Assembly: GCF_000736415.1 (NCBI RefSeq)
Contig: NZ_CP009043.1
Location: forward strand, 186,001 to 250,000
Direction of reading: 5' to 3'
From: Campylobacter iguaniorum
Lineage (GTDB): Bacteria > Campylobacterota > Campylobacteria > Campylobacterales > Campylobacteraceae
Length of the DNA stretch: 64,000 nucleotides
Of the stretch, positions 38,286 to 43,778 are shown piece after piece. Made by a program: the position numbers and the translations under genes. The notes beneath the pieces are model-generated. The model was not told where the DNA came from, ran no database searches, and saw nothing but the letters and a program-made list of their open reading frames with translations. Each line of letters starts with the position of its first letter. Position 1 is the stretch's first letter.

Positions 38286-39011
38286 GTGATAAGCGTGGTC
38301 GAGCATTTCGCCAGCATCCAAGGCGAGGGGAAATTCCAAGGTAGATACTCATTTTTTATCCGTTTGGCTGGGTGCAATCTGTCTTGCAAAGGCTTTGGCT
38401 GTGAGATGAAATCACCTAAAACTGGCGAGATTTTGGTCGGGTGCGACACGATAAGAGCAGTTGCTATCAAGCATTTTGATTATCCTAAATTTGACTTTGT
38501 GGGTTTAAAAAATTTAGTAGAAAATCTCAAATTTAAGCCTATCATCGTCCTAACTGGCGGAGAACCTCTTCTTTGGCATAAAGACGTTGATTTGCAAAAA
38601 TTCATAGCGTGGCTTTTGGAGCGTGAGTATGAAGTACATTTTGAGACAAACGGCACTGTTTTTGTGGATTTTAATCAGTTTGAAATCTATAAAAAATGCA
38701 AATTTGCTATCAGTCCCAAACTAGCCATAAGTGGCGAACCAAAATCAAAAAGATTAAATCAAAAAGCCTTAAAATCGCTATTTGCAAATGCTAGTGCGTT
38801 TTATAAATTTGTAGTGCGTGGGGACGAGCTTGATGAGATAAGAGAGATTTTAGCCTTGCAAAACGGCGAAGTGTGGTGCATGCCTCTTGGCAAAAATATC
38901 TCCGAGCTAAACGCAAACGCCATAAATGTGGCAAACTTTTGCATAAATCACGGCTTTAATTACAGCGATAGACTTCATATCAGGCTTTGGAATGACAAAG
39001 AGGGTGTGTAG
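38286..39011 (+). CDS. queE: 7-carboxy-7-deazaguanine synthase QueE
   Basis: A 241-residue radical SAM enzyme of the queuosine/preQ0 pathway acting after QueD. EHFASIQGEGKFQGR and RLAGCNLSC match QueE. Cysteines are at 30, 34, 39 and 53, so the motif is CNLSC then GFGC and GCDT rather than the simple CxxxCxxC. GTG start at 38286, two bases after the moaA stop. Its pathway partner queD lies nearly 5 kb downstream, separated by the restriction-modification and yqhD genes. Confidence 0.88.
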   Translation: MISVVEHFASIQGEGKFQGRYSFFIRLAGCNLSCKGFGCEMKSPKTGEILVGCDTIRAVAIKHFDYPKFDFVGLKNLVENLKFKPIIVLTGGEPLLWHKDVDLQKFIAWLLEREYEVHFETNGTVFVDFNQFEIYKKCKFAISPKLAISGEPKSKRLNQKALKSLFANASAFYKFVVRGDELDEIREILALQNGEVWCMPLGKNISELNANAINVANFCINHGFNYSDRLHIRLWNDKEGV

Positions 39012-39020
39012 ATTTAGCCT

Positions 39021-40628
39021 TTAAATACTATTTAAACACATATCAAAAAGCTCATCGGTATTTTCAAGTTTCTTTATGAAGTCATCTGAGCTAAAACACA
39101 AGATATCAATATTTTTATCAAATTTTGAAAAATCCACGTAACGTTTGACATCATCGTGAATTTGTGGTGCTACAAAAATACTGAATTTAATTTTTTTGTT
39201 TTGGGAATTTTCTATGTTTTTGAGTAAATGACGTTCTATTGGTATTATTTCATTTGCCACTTGTATACGACCAGCCATCAAAGAAACTTCAATATAGCTT
39301 TCGCATTTTTTATCATTTGCGATAATATCGGCTTTGTTTCCACTGGCAAATCTTATAGGAATTCCCTCATCATCACAGATATAATTTGGCAAAATCTCAG
39401 CATTTTTAAAAGCTTGTTTTAAAATTATGGATGTTAAAAACTCAAATCTAAGTGGTTTATCAATCAATTTTAGAACCATATCATCTGATTTTTTGTTTTT
39501 AGAACAGGTTATTAGTAGTTCGTCTTTAATGAAGTTTTTATCATAGTTTAATGCAAATTTTTCAAGACTTTGTAGCTTTATATTTTGGCTAGTTTCTTCT
39601 GTTTCTTGTCTTTGAGTGAAATTTTCATCTATTTGGGACATATATTTATAAAATTCAAAAGCCTTTTCATCGTTATCGTTTAGGAAATTTTCATATTGTG
39701 GTATTGGCTTGGATAAAATGTAGTTAATTTTTACCATTTCATTTTTATTAAAATCTAAAAACCTGCCATTTCCACGAAGTGAAATAAGTCCAGTGATACG
39801 CATTTTTCTAATATATTCATCAATTGCCTCACCTGTAATTTGGCTTATTTTAAATCTTGTTTCATTTGTTGAATTTAATAATTTTAAACATTTTTCGTAA
39901 ATGAACTCATCGCTGTATCCAAAATTTAGTTTTGAAATTTTATAAATTTCATTTCGTAAGTTTAAAATAGTCGCAAAAAGTTCGTTAACATTGTTGTTTG
40001 GGTAGCATAAAAGTATGCTTATCTCATCTCTATAAATCCCAGTTGAATTTGGGTCGCAAGTATGAAGTTTTTCTATTAATTTTAGGAGCAAAACAAATGG
40101 CGTTGTTAGATTTGAATTTTTCTTAAAAGGATTGCCTACTTGATACCTTGACATTGCATTTAAAAAAACATTCGATACAATTTCATCATCGATACTGTTA
40201 TCATCTTTTATACTATTGATGAGCATTTTGCCAGTATTGCTTATTAGTATCTTTTTATTTTTTTGATAATAACAAAATCCAAATTCTTTCATCAATTTAT
40301 ACCAAGTATCAAACCTGCTTTCCCAGCCTTTTTCAAAGCCTTTTTCCTTGTGATTTTGTTCTGAGTTTTGGACTATAAATTCTAGTTCATCATCACTAAA
40401 ACCATCTTCGCTTTGAAAAATATCTTTTAAATTTGGATGTAGATTCATAAGTTGTTGTGGATAGTAAATTTTAGCATTTATCACATTTTTTACGATTTTA
40501 AGTATAATTTCATTTGTTAAAATTTGGTTTTCAAAAATAGATAAAATTTTTAAAAAATTTGGTATTCTTTTTGGATTTCTTATGGTGGTAGAAAAACTCA
40601 AAATTTTTTGTTCAAATTTGCGTGCCAT
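39021..40628 (-). CDS. Type IIS restriction endonuclease, AlwI/N.BspD6I family
   Basis: A 535-residue protein. The N-terminal two thirds (FDTWYKLMKEFGF, TGKMLINSI, TTPFVLLLKLIEKL, RITGLISLRGNGRFL) follow the recognition and linker layout of N.BspD6I as I remember it. The C-terminal nuclease domain has Glu396, Asp434 (GNKADIIA), Glu447 (YIEVSL) and Glu460 (ANEIIPIERHLL); these spacings (38, 13, 13) equal those of the catalytic Glu418, Asp456, Glu469 and Glu482 of N.BspD6I from memory. Known relatives recognise GGATC (AlwI) or GAGTC (BstNBI, PleI) and cut outside the site or nick one strand. Specificity here is unknown. No small-subunit gene adjoins it. Confidence 0.85.
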   Translation of the reverse strand: MARKFEQKILSFSTTIRNPKRIPNFLKILSIFENQILTNEIILKIVKNVINAKIYYPQQLMNLHPNLKDIFQSEDGFSDDELEFIVQNSEQNHKEKGFEKGWESRFDTWYKLMKEFGFCYYQKNKKILISNTGKMLINSIKDDNSIDDEIVSNVFLNAMSRYQVGNPFKKNSNLTTPFVLLLKLIEKLHTCDPNSTGIYRDEISILLCYPNNNVNELFATILNLRNEIYKISKLNFGYSDEFIYEKCLKLLNSTNETRFKISQITGEAIDEYIRKMRITGLISLRGNGRFLDFNKNEMVKINYILSKPIPQYENFLNDNDEKAFEFYKYMSQIDENFTQRQETEETSQNIKLQSLEKFALNYDKNFIKDELLITCSKNKKSDDMVLKLIDKPLRFEFLTSIILKQAFKNAEILPNYICDDEGIPIRFASGNKADIIANDKKCESYIEVSLMAGRIQVANEIIPIERHLLKNIENSQNKKIKFSIFVAPQIHDDVKRYVDFSKFDKNIDILCFSSDDFIKKLENTDELFDMCLNSI

Positions 40629-40642
40629 TTTATTTGCCTTGT

Positions 40643-41536
40643 TTATAAATTTATTACAAAAAGTTCTTTGCTATCTGCTTTTATTGTGTTATCGTTAAAG
40701 CTTATGTAATTACTTTTTATGTTGTAAATTTTGTATTTTTGAGACCATTTTTCAAAAATTGTATTTGTTTTGCCTTTATGATGGAGTAAATTTGTAATAC
40801 CAAATTTAATATTTTTCTTATCTAGTTCATCAAGTTTTTGATAAAGTAAAATTTCACTCATTTCATTCCAATTTTTGCAATATTGTGAATTTGATATGAG
40901 ATATGGTGGGTCGCAATATACAAAATCGCTTTTTCTGAAATCAATTTTATTTAAAAAATCACAGTAATCTTGTGAAAAAAATTCGCATTTTTTGTCTTTT
41001 ATAAAATTTAGATAATCATTTATGGCTTTATAAACATTTTTATTGAAATCCACATTGCCAACAGGGAGATTGAAATCGCCTAATTTATTAAATCTAATCA
41101 TATGATTAAAACCATAAATAAGCAAAATATATAATAATAAAATTTGGTTTTTATTTTTGTTGAAATCGTTTTTTAGATTTTGGTATGATTGTTTGTTAAA
41201 TTTGGCATAGTATGTTTTTATATACATTTTTTTCATATCATCTGGAGCAGTTTTGCCAAGATAAGAACAGCTTAAATCATAGCTATTTATCATAGCAAAT
41301 ATATCATCAAAAAGTTTATTTGGCTGGTTTGCAAAAGATAGTAGAAATTTATGGATTTTGATTATATTTTGATCTATATCATTGAGTAAATATACATTGG
41401 CTTGCGTGTTTAAAAAAGCACTTCCACCACCGACAAATGGCTCAATAAATCTATCTATTTTTTTAGGAAAAAGTTTTTGCAACTCTTCCATAAGCTTATA
41501 TTTGTCGCCTACGTAAAAAAGTGGTGAGCGTATCAA
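40643..41536 (-). CDS. D12-class DNA adenine methyltransferase (second)
   Basis: A 297-residue Dam-like N6-adenine methyltransferase: N-terminal PLFYVGDKYKLM, SAM-binding FIEPFVGGGSAF (30-41), catalytic DPPY at 209-212. It probably methylates one strand of the asymmetric site read by the adjacent endonuclease. ATG overlaps the stop of the first methyltransferase (4 nt). It differs clearly in sequence from the first one, so they are not a recent duplication. Confidence 0.9.
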   Translation of the reverse strand: MIRSPLFYVGDKYKLMEELQKLFPKKIDRFIEPFVGGGSAFLNTQANVYLLNDIDQNIIKIHKFLLSFANQPNKLFDDIFAMINSYDLSCSYLGKTAPDDMKKMYIKTYYAKFNKQSYQNLKNDFNKNKNQILLLYILLIYGFNHMIRFNKLGDFNLPVGNVDFNKNVYKAINDYLNFIKDKKCEFFSQDYCDFLNKIDFRKSDFVYCDPPYLISNSQYCKNWNEMSEILLYQKLDELDKKNIKFGITNLLHHKGKTNTIFEKWSQKYKIYNIKSNYISFNDNTIKADSKELFVINL

Positions 41537-42534
41537 TTCTTAACCTTTACTAGAAATAAAAATTCTTTGTGGTTGCCAAAATCTGTTTTACCAGCATTAA
41601 AAAAAATATGAGTTTGCTCTTTTATACTCAAATCGCCTTTTTTGGATAAAATTTCTACGATTTGGTCATAACTTATTTTGTTTTTTGATGAACTAGACTT
41701 TGAATTGTATGTATTGTTGTAAGTAAGAGCTATAAATTTAGTATTGAGATTTTGTATCAAATCATCAAGTATTTTTGGTGCATTTGAGCGACAATATTCA
41801 CTCATATTTTGCTCTTTTGGTTTTAAGGCTATGCCAAATAACTCAGGTTTTTTCCATTGTGCTAAGTTTTCATAAATATGATAAAAACGACTATATTGAC
41901 GACTATTGTATGGTGGGTCGATAAATATCAAATCAGCCTTTATCTCTTTTGCTAATTCATTGCTGTCTTTTTGATATATAATTATATTTTTTTTTGTTGA
42001 TATTGGTTTGATAAGTTCAAATTTAAAGCAGTCATTAAATTGTACTTTTTTACGATACGCCTCAAAATGCCCCACAGTATTTGCAACTCTATCACAAGAA
42101 TAAATTAAGCTGGCTAAAATAATACTTCTCTCTTTATCGTTTAACTCCAAGTTGTCTAAATTTTCCCTAATAAAGCCGATTTTTTTGGCATCATTTTGAC
42201 TAAAAAATTTATTTCCAAAATTTAGTGAAAAATAATTTTCTTCTAAATTTTTTATTGAATTAAAATAATTTGAAATTTTGGCAAGTTTATCTTTATTAAA
42301 ATTACTTTGGTTAAAAAAAGCATTGTAAATTGTCTGATTTGAATATAAAAAATCGTTGATTATAATTGTTTTTGCGTCCGTGTCTTTAATGATAAATTCT
42401 GATACGACGCCAGTTCCAGCAAAAATATCAGCAAAACTATCAAATTTTATATCTAGTATTTGGCTTTTTATAAAGTCCAAAAGCTTTGCTTTGCTACCTA
42501 TATAACGCCTATTTTTTAATTCAAATTCTCTCAT
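41533..42534 (-). CDS. D12-class DNA adenine methyltransferase (first)
   Basis: A 333-residue N6-adenine methyltransferase: RRYIGSKAKLLDFI, SAM-binding FADIFAGTGVVSEF (34-47) and DPPYNSRQYSRFYHIYENLA with the catalytic DPPY at 206-209. The DPPYNSRQYS form is typical of methyltransferases of type IIS systems such as one half of the FokI enzyme. First gene of the cassette, so methylation would be expressed ahead of cleavage. The AT-rich 95-bp gap upstream (42535-42629) must hold its promoter; TATATT-like stretches are too many to choose one. Confidence 0.9.
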   Translation of the reverse strand: MREFELKNRRYIGSKAKLLDFIKSQILDIKFDSFADIFAGTGVVSEFIIKDTDAKTIIINDFLYSNQTIYNAFFNQSNFNKDKLAKISNYFNSIKNLEENYFSLNFGNKFFSQNDAKKIGFIRENLDNLELNDKERSIILASLIYSCDRVANTVGHFEAYRKKVQFNDCFKFELIKPISTKKNIIIYQKDSNELAKEIKADLIFIDPPYNSRQYSRFYHIYENLAQWKKPELFGIALKPKEQNMSEYCRSNAPKILDDLIQNLNTKFIALTYNNTYNSKSSSSKNKISYDQIVEILSKKGDLSIKEQTHIFFNAGKTDFGNHKEFLFLVKVKN

Positions 42535-42629
42535 TGATTGGCTGTATTTCTCACTTATAGTTTAATTGTGTTAGTGATTATATTAAATATTATATTAAAA
42601 ACTATTTTATTTATTAAAAAACTATATAC

Positions 42630-43778
42630 CTAACACTCCAAAAGTATCTGTCTAACTGCTTTGTAATCGATATTTGCATGTTCTCCAGCCACTAAATTTC
42701 GTTCTTTAAATCTATTTGATATTTGCTCTGCCACTTCAAATTTATCCAGCCCAAGCTCAGCCAAGCTCGTAGCTATGCCAGTAGAGGCGAAAAGCTCTTC
42801 TATCTTGTGCGTGCAAGCCATCGCCACGCTCATTTCATCACCATTTAGAGCGAATAGCTCACGCCCCATTTTGGCTAGTTTGGTGGATTTAAATTTGATA
42901 TTGTATCTCAAAAGTCTAGTCGTGACCACTGCAAGGCTTAGTCCATGATCTATTCCATACGCCGCACTTAGCTCGTGTCCGATTGCGTGGCTTGACCAGT
43001 CTTGAACACACCCAAGAGATGCCCAGCCATTTAGCGCGCAAGTCGCCGCCCAGCATAAATTTGCCCTGACGTCGTAGTTTTGCGGCTCGCTTTCTAGTGC
43101 TTTTGCATTTTGTATCACGGCTTTTAATACGCTCAAGCAAAATCCATCTTGCACATCTGTGCTTAAATCTTGCGTGGCGTACTGCTCCAAAACATGCACG
43201 AAAGTATCGACAATACCGTTTCTAAGCTGTCTTAATGGCAGGCTAAAGGTGGTTTGTGGGTCGATGATGCTAAAGCGTGGATAGACGAGTGGATTTTTAA
43301 AGCTTTTTTTGATTTTTAAAGCCCCGTTTGATATAACTGAAGCACAGTTCATCTCGCTGCCAGTCGCTGGCAAGGTCATCACGCAGCCAAGTGGCATGGC
43401 GTCACTAAATTTAGCTCTAAGCCCCACTATATCCCAAATCTCACCGTCAAATTTAGCTGCCGCGGCGATGAATTTCGTAGCGTCCAAAACGCTTCCACCA
43501 CCCACACTAAGCAAAAAATCTATCTCATGCTCTTTTATCAAATTTAGAGCTTTTTGGCAAGTTTCAAGTCTAGGATTTGGCTCCACGCCCCAAAACTCAC
43601 GCACAAAAAATCCTTCTAAAGCCTGAGTGACTTGCTCATAAACTCCGTTTGTTTTCACGCTTCCACCGCCAAAAATCGCCAAGACTTTGGCGTTTTTTGG
43701 TATTTCGTTTTTTATTTCTTTTATGGAATTTTTGCCAAATATAACTTTTGTTGGACATTGGTAGGTAAAATTATTCAT
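42630..43778 (-). CDS. Iron-containing alcohol dehydrogenase, YqhD-like
   Basis: A 382-residue group III dehydrogenase. NAD(P)-binding GGGSVKTNG and SVGGGSVLDATKF, and metal ligands in DTFVHVLEQY and HAIGHELSAAYGIDHG, are intact. The opening MNNFTYQCPTKVIFGK resembles YqhD, an NADPH-dependent aldehyde reductase that detoxifies short aldehydes; a butanol-dehydrogenase role is the alternative. Less AT-rich than the adjacent restriction genes. Divergent from queD. Confidence 0.88.
   Translation of the reverse strand: MNNFTYQCPTKVIFGKNSIKEIKNEIPKNAKVLAIFGGGSVKTNGVYEQVTQALEGFFVREFWGVEPNPRLETCQKALNLIKEHEIDFLLSVGGGSVLDATKFIAAAAKFDGEIWDIVGLRAKFSDAMPLGCVMTLPATGSEMNCASVISNGALKIKKSFKNPLVYPRFSIIDPQTTFSLPLRQLRNGIVDTFVHVLEQYATQDLSTDVQDGFCLSVLKAVIQNAKALESEPQNYDVRANLCWAATCALNGWASLGCVQDWSSHAIGHELSAAYGIDHGLSLAVVTTRLLRYNIKFKSTKLAKMGRELFALNGDEMSVAMACTHKIEELFASTGIATSLAELGLDKFEVAEQISNRFKERNLVAGEHANIDYKAVRQILLEC

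What the first reader, a model, noticed from the sequence alone, without database searches (positions are those of the whole stretch)
39021..42534. AlwI/N.BspD6I-like type IIS restriction system with two separate D12 adenine methyltransferases
Seen: Glu396, Asp434, Glu447 and Glu460 of the 535-residue nuclease have spacings 38, 13 and 13, the same as the catalytic residues I recall for N.BspD6I, and the upstream segments align in order. Two unlike D12 methyltransferases precede it. Known: this family reads asymmetric sites such as GGATC or GAGTC and includes natural nickases. Inference: the two methyltransferases each protect one strand, and the nuclease may cut or nick. The specificity and nicking behaviour are unknown.
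Basis: partly seen in the sequence, partly recalled or inferred. Interest (0 to 1): 0.75.

Follow-up and report, generated by a model that had tools for sequence, protein, structure and literature searches.

The report
AlwI-family type IIS restriction-modification operon
A Campylobacter-type bacterium carries a horizontally acquired three-gene DNA self-defence cassette (one enzyme that cuts foreign DNA, two that mark the two strands of the host's own sites); it is of a known kind, with close relatives in Helicobacter pylori-type genomes.

Summary
On the minus strand at 39021-42534 lie three genes in one compact operon: two unlike D12 adenine methyltransferases (M1, M2) and a 535-residue AlwI-family endonuclease (R). 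R matches Pfam RE_AlwI (118 bits); its predicted fold matches N.BspD6I best, and E396/D434/E447/E460 align with BspD6I's catalytic columns. The cassette is a low-GC (25-27%) insertion: same-genus genomes have 60-76 bp there instead of 3.6 kb. The same trio recurs in other Campylobacter, Helicobacter and Bacillota plasmids. The closest with published function are in H. pylori-type genomes (R 53-55%, M1 59-60%, M2 62-63% identical); literature describes an H. pylori CCATC(4/5) system with m6A on CCATC and on GATGG. Best call: an ordinary type IIS system cutting both strands, probably at CCATC/GATGG rather than GGATC or GAGTC. The CCATC link rests on clade, layout and literature, not on comparison with a sequence named HpyC1I. 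Nicking has no positive support: no small-subunit gene was found, and the likely orthologue is listed with cuts on both strands. Site avoidance does not settle specificity. New member of a known kind; low interest.

The parts
41533..42534 (-). M1: D12-class adenine DNA methyltransferase, 333 aa (DPPYNSRQYSR and DIFAGTG motifs)
   Evidence: MethyltransfD12 E=2e-29; PADLOC MTase_II 474 bits; motifs invariant in 16 homologues
40643..41536 (-). M2: Dam-like D12 adenine DNA methyltransferase, 297 aa, TTG start overlapping the M1 stop by 4 bp
   Evidence: MethyltransfD12 E=7e-30; TIGR00571 dam 138 bits, cut-off 115; T4 Dam in PDB E=3e-38; DPPY and GGG motifs invariant
39021..40628 (-). R: AlwI-family type IIS restriction endonuclease, 535 aa
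   Evidence: RE_AlwI E=5.4e-34; PADLOC 647 bits; N.BspD6I by profile E=2.6e-22 and by fold E=4e-19
39249..39443 (-). codons of the catalytic residues E396 to E460 of R
39011..42630 (.). acquired low-GC insertion between queE and an iron-type alcohol dehydrogenase gene
   Evidence: collinearity with three same-genus genomes breaks at 39010 and resumes at 42631; GC 0.25-0.27

Best explanation
A horizontally acquired type IIS restriction-modification system of the AlwI family, with the M1-M2-R layout seen in H. pylori-type genomes. M1 and M2 each put N6-methyladenine on one strand of a 5-bp asymmetric site. R recognises the unmethylated site with its N-terminal region and cuts a few bases downstream with its single catalytic region, most likely cutting both strands by bringing two copies together. 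The most likely site is CCATC/GATGG, cut 4/5 as listed for HpyC1I (my probability for this site about 0.6; for the system type about 0.97). Shown: gene content, family, fold, conserved catalytic residues, insertion, relatives. Inferred: site, which methyltransferase serves which strand, dimerisation, double-strand cutting, activity in this strain.
For: Families and PDB profile and fold matches. The M1-M2-R trio is conserved in Campylobacter portucalensis (R 67%), C. showae (55%), H. cetorum (56%) and H. pylori-type genomes (53-55%), M1 and M2 59-69%. R tree: window R lies in a 100/100 clade of eight with these. G178 is H. pylori-like: its TenA is nearly identical to chains 2rd3/3ibx, which I know to be H. 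pylori. H. pylori literature: HpyC1I CCATC(4/5) (PMC3849833); CCATC m6A with two adjacent methyltransferase tags and a split nuclease nearby (PMC6381644); GATGG m6A 99-100% in strain F16 (PMC3983042). L046 and L047 show the same layout with a broken R. One methyltransferase per strand is the rule for type IIS systems (PMC4081073).
Against: No sequence named HpyC1I could be compared; the link from the H. pylori-type loci to CCATC rests on layout and literature. At about 54% identity the site could have changed. In a sample of about 430 kb, GAGTC is the most avoided 5-mer (O/E 0.43) and CCATC only the 15th (0.71); but GAGTC and GAATC are low across the genus, and CCATC is not avoided in H. pylori. 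R matches the PADLOC nicking-endonuclease model weakly (101 bits).
Confidence: 0.8

Rival explanations
1. Same kind of system but reading GAGTC or GGATC.
For: GAGTC is the most avoided 5-mer in the sample, more so than in four same-genus genomes; R's family includes GAGTC and GGATC readers (PMC9799307).
Against: R is only about 20% identical to the GAGTC reader N.BspD6I in the fold alignment but 53-55% to the H. pylori-type proteins. GAATC is low too and both are low genus-wide, which points to a GANTC pressure. MlyI (GAGTC) has a single methyltransferase and AlwI (GGATC) a fused one (PMC4081073). GGATC is not avoided at all (O/E 1.12).
Confidence: 0.2
2. R is a natural nickase like Nt.BstNBI, cutting one strand only.
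For: Fold and catalytic residues of N.BspD6I; weak match to the PADLOC nicking model.
Against: In BspD6I the large subunit is one half of a restriction enzyme whose small subunit cuts the other strand; no such gene was found here. The likely orthologue is listed as CCATC(4/5), both strands. Nicks alone would protect poorly.
Confidence: 0.07
3. An inactive remnant: genes intact by reading frame but not restricting.
For: R is broken in several relatives (L041, L046, L047, L032).
Against: All three frames are open here and catalytic motifs are intact.
Confidence: 0.1

Closest known systems
HpyC1I system of Helicobacter pylori, CCATC(4/5)
   Same: H. pylori-type loci L042-L047 have the same M1-M2-R order and a 4-bp M1/M2 overlap (L042, L043 checked); R 53-55%, M1 59-60%, M2 62-63% identical
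   Different: other genus and insertion site; site not measured here; equating those loci with HpyC1I rests on layout and literature
AlwI (GGATC 4/5)
   Same: Pfam family RE_AlwI; two m6A methyltransferases, one per strand
   Different: in AlwI the two methyltransferases are joined in one chain (PMC4081073); here they are separate genes
BstNBI/BspD6I (GAGTC; large subunit nicks alone)
   Same: fold and catalytic residues of the large subunit
   Different: no small-subunit gene here; about 20% identity in the fold alignment
Caldicellulosiruptor Cal02329 (GCATC/GATGC)
   Same: AlwI-family R with two separate m6A methyltransferases (PMC9799307)
   Different: other site; sequences not compared here

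Membership tests
AlwI-family type IIS endonuclease (PF09491) | match to RE_AlwI over most of the model above the curated cut-off | tested here: met
   118.4 bits, cut-off 23.1, model 2-412 of 441
AlwI-family type IIS endonuclease (PF09491) | catalytic residues equivalent to BspD6I E418/D456/E469/E482 | tested here: met
   E396/D434/E447/E460 aligned, invariant in 21 homologues
AlwI-family type IIS endonuclease (PF09491) | cuts outside an asymmetric site | not testable with these tools
   needs purified enzyme
type IIS R-M with one methyltransferase per strand | two DNA adenine methyltransferases with intact AdoMet and DPPY motifs | tested here: met
type IIS R-M with one methyltransferase per strand | paired m6A motif on the two strands of one site | not testable with these tools
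   needs a methylome
HpyC1I-type system (CCATC) | same clade and gene layout as the H. pylori-type AlwI loci | tested here: met
HpyC1I-type system (CCATC) | reads CCATC | tested here: inconclusive
   CCATC O/E 0.71 here against 0.80-0.99 in four relatives; weak
HpyC1I-type system (CCATC) | direct sequence similarity to the protein published as HpyC1I | not testable with these tools
   no record named HpyC1I is held
BspD6I/BstNBI heterodimeric enzyme with nicking large subunit | separate small catalytic subunit encoded with the large one | tested here: not met
   no such ORF in the cassette; one match only in the genome

The most novel reading that the evidence does not exclude
R has a site not yet described for the AlwI family, or nicks one strand on its own without any small subunit, giving a new reagent enzyme.
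Probability: 0.1. Interest if true: 0.4.

Novelty: new member of a known kind. Interest (0 to 1): 0.15.

Why it matters
It adds a Campylobacter member to a set of mobile AlwI-type systems shared by Campylobacter, Helicobacter and Bacillota plasmids, with a concrete site prediction (CCATC/GATGG) that would help explain methylation patterns and transformation barriers in this species. It does not change understanding of the family.

Tried and rejected
Phage records hold no relative of R. phmmer of M1 against PDB gave nothing. A first marker ORF chosen to identify the Helicobacter genomes was the wrong gene (an acid phosphatase); replaced by TenA. Site avoidance was considered as a test of specificity and set aside as undecided: GAGTC, GGATG, GCATC and CCATC are all low, several across the genus. 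No RNA family near the cassette; promoter-like hits are at the chance level. A paper search for a Campylobacter methylome with CCATC found none.

Full report
Observation. M1 and M2 overlap by 4 bp (TTGA: the M1 stop and the TTG start of M2 share bases), and the relatives L037, L038, L042 and L043 also overlap by 4 bp. R starts 14 bp after M2 ends. The residues E396, D434, E447 and E460 are correct.

Identity of the parts. R matches Pfam RE_AlwI (E=5.4e-34) and a PADLOC type II nuclease model over almost its whole length (647 bits). A profile of 21 homologues finds N.BspD6I in the PDB in both the recognition and the catalytic region (E=2.6e-22) and also the BspD6I small subunit; the four acidic residues fall on the BspD6I columns and never vary in the set. 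The AlphaFold model is confident (mean pLDDT 89.8). Its best PDB fold is N.BspD6I (E=4e-19), followed by FokI and the BspD6I small subunit. The whole-chain TM-score to N.BspD6I is only about 0.48, so the domains are related but not placed identically. M1 and M2 are both D12 methyltransferases; M2 is Dam-like. M1 and M2 match, in order, the front and rear parts of single-chain double methyltransferases (PADLOC models of 646 and 722 positions).

Origin. The genes have GC 0.25-0.27 and GC3 about 0.22, against 0.38-0.43 and 0.35-0.42 for the neighbours. In three same-genus genomes queE and the alcohol dehydrogenase gene face each other with 60-76 bp between them; the alignment to our window breaks at 39010 and resumes at 42631. 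Only one of 15 other same-genus genomes has a relative of R, at 47%. This fits acquisition by horizontal transfer. No integrase lies in the cassette; its ends were only inspected by eye.

Relatives. The same trio is in Campylobacter portucalensis (R 67%), C. showae, H. cetorum, several H. pylori-type genomes, an S. epidermidis qacA plasmid, and Lactococcus, Leuconostoc and Macrococcoides plasmids. A second gene order, M2-R-M1, occurs in Helicobacter plasmids and some genomes (L031, L052, L063). The R tree puts the window protein in a fully supported clade of eight with Campylobacter and H. pylori-type proteins.

Specificity. G178, the source of L042, has a TenA almost identical to PDB chains 2rd3/3ibx, which I know to be from H. 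pylori; L043-L045 come from genomes of the same genus whose R is 94-97% identical to each other and to that of L042. H. pylori has a published enzyme HpyC1I, CCATC(4/5) (PMC3849833); strains UM032 and HP14039 have CCATC m6A (PMC4450513; PMC6381644), and F16 has GATGG m6A (PMC3983042). In HP14039 two methyltransferase tags and a split nuclease are nearly adjacent, as in L046 and L047 here. My memory that HpyC1I has two upstream adenine methyltransferases agrees but was not checked in the original paper. I therefore put CCATC/GATGG at about 0.6. Site counts are inconclusive: CCATC is mildly low and lowest in this genome of five sampled, but GAGTC and GGATG are lower.

Mechanism. By the rule for type IIS systems (PMC4081073), each methyltransferase protects one strand. 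R has one catalytic region, and no BspD6I-type small subunit was found, so double-strand cutting by a transient dimer, as for AlwI, is the natural reading. Nicking is not excluded by sequence but has no positive evidence.

Verdict. A sound observation and a correct family call, with too much weight on nicking and a probably different site. Ordinary; new member of a known kind.

Noticed in passing
L041 6001-7628; L046 4212-5831; L047 4274-5885; L032 5905-7822; L069 1489-3035: The nuclease gene is split into two or more frames in several Helicobacter and Campylobacter-family relatives, while both methyltransferase genes stay open in L041, L046, L047 and L032. This suggests repeated loss of cutting with methylation kept.
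   Followed up: partly
L031, L052, L063 against L037, L038, L042: Two gene orders exist in the family, M1-M2-R and M2-R-M1, with the same three genes.
   Followed up: no
L039 455-3989: A MAG labelled Bacilli carries a trio that falls inside the Campylobacter/Helicobacter clade: recent transfer or contig contamination.
   Followed up: no
L108-L126 and the window: GAGTC, GAATC, GGATG and GCATC are depleted here and in four same-genus genomes; CCGAG and GAGTC are the most depleted in this genome relative to the others. Other restriction pressures are likely.
   Followed up: partly
window 41987-41995: A run of nine A on the coding strand inside M1, a possible slippage site.
   Followed up: no
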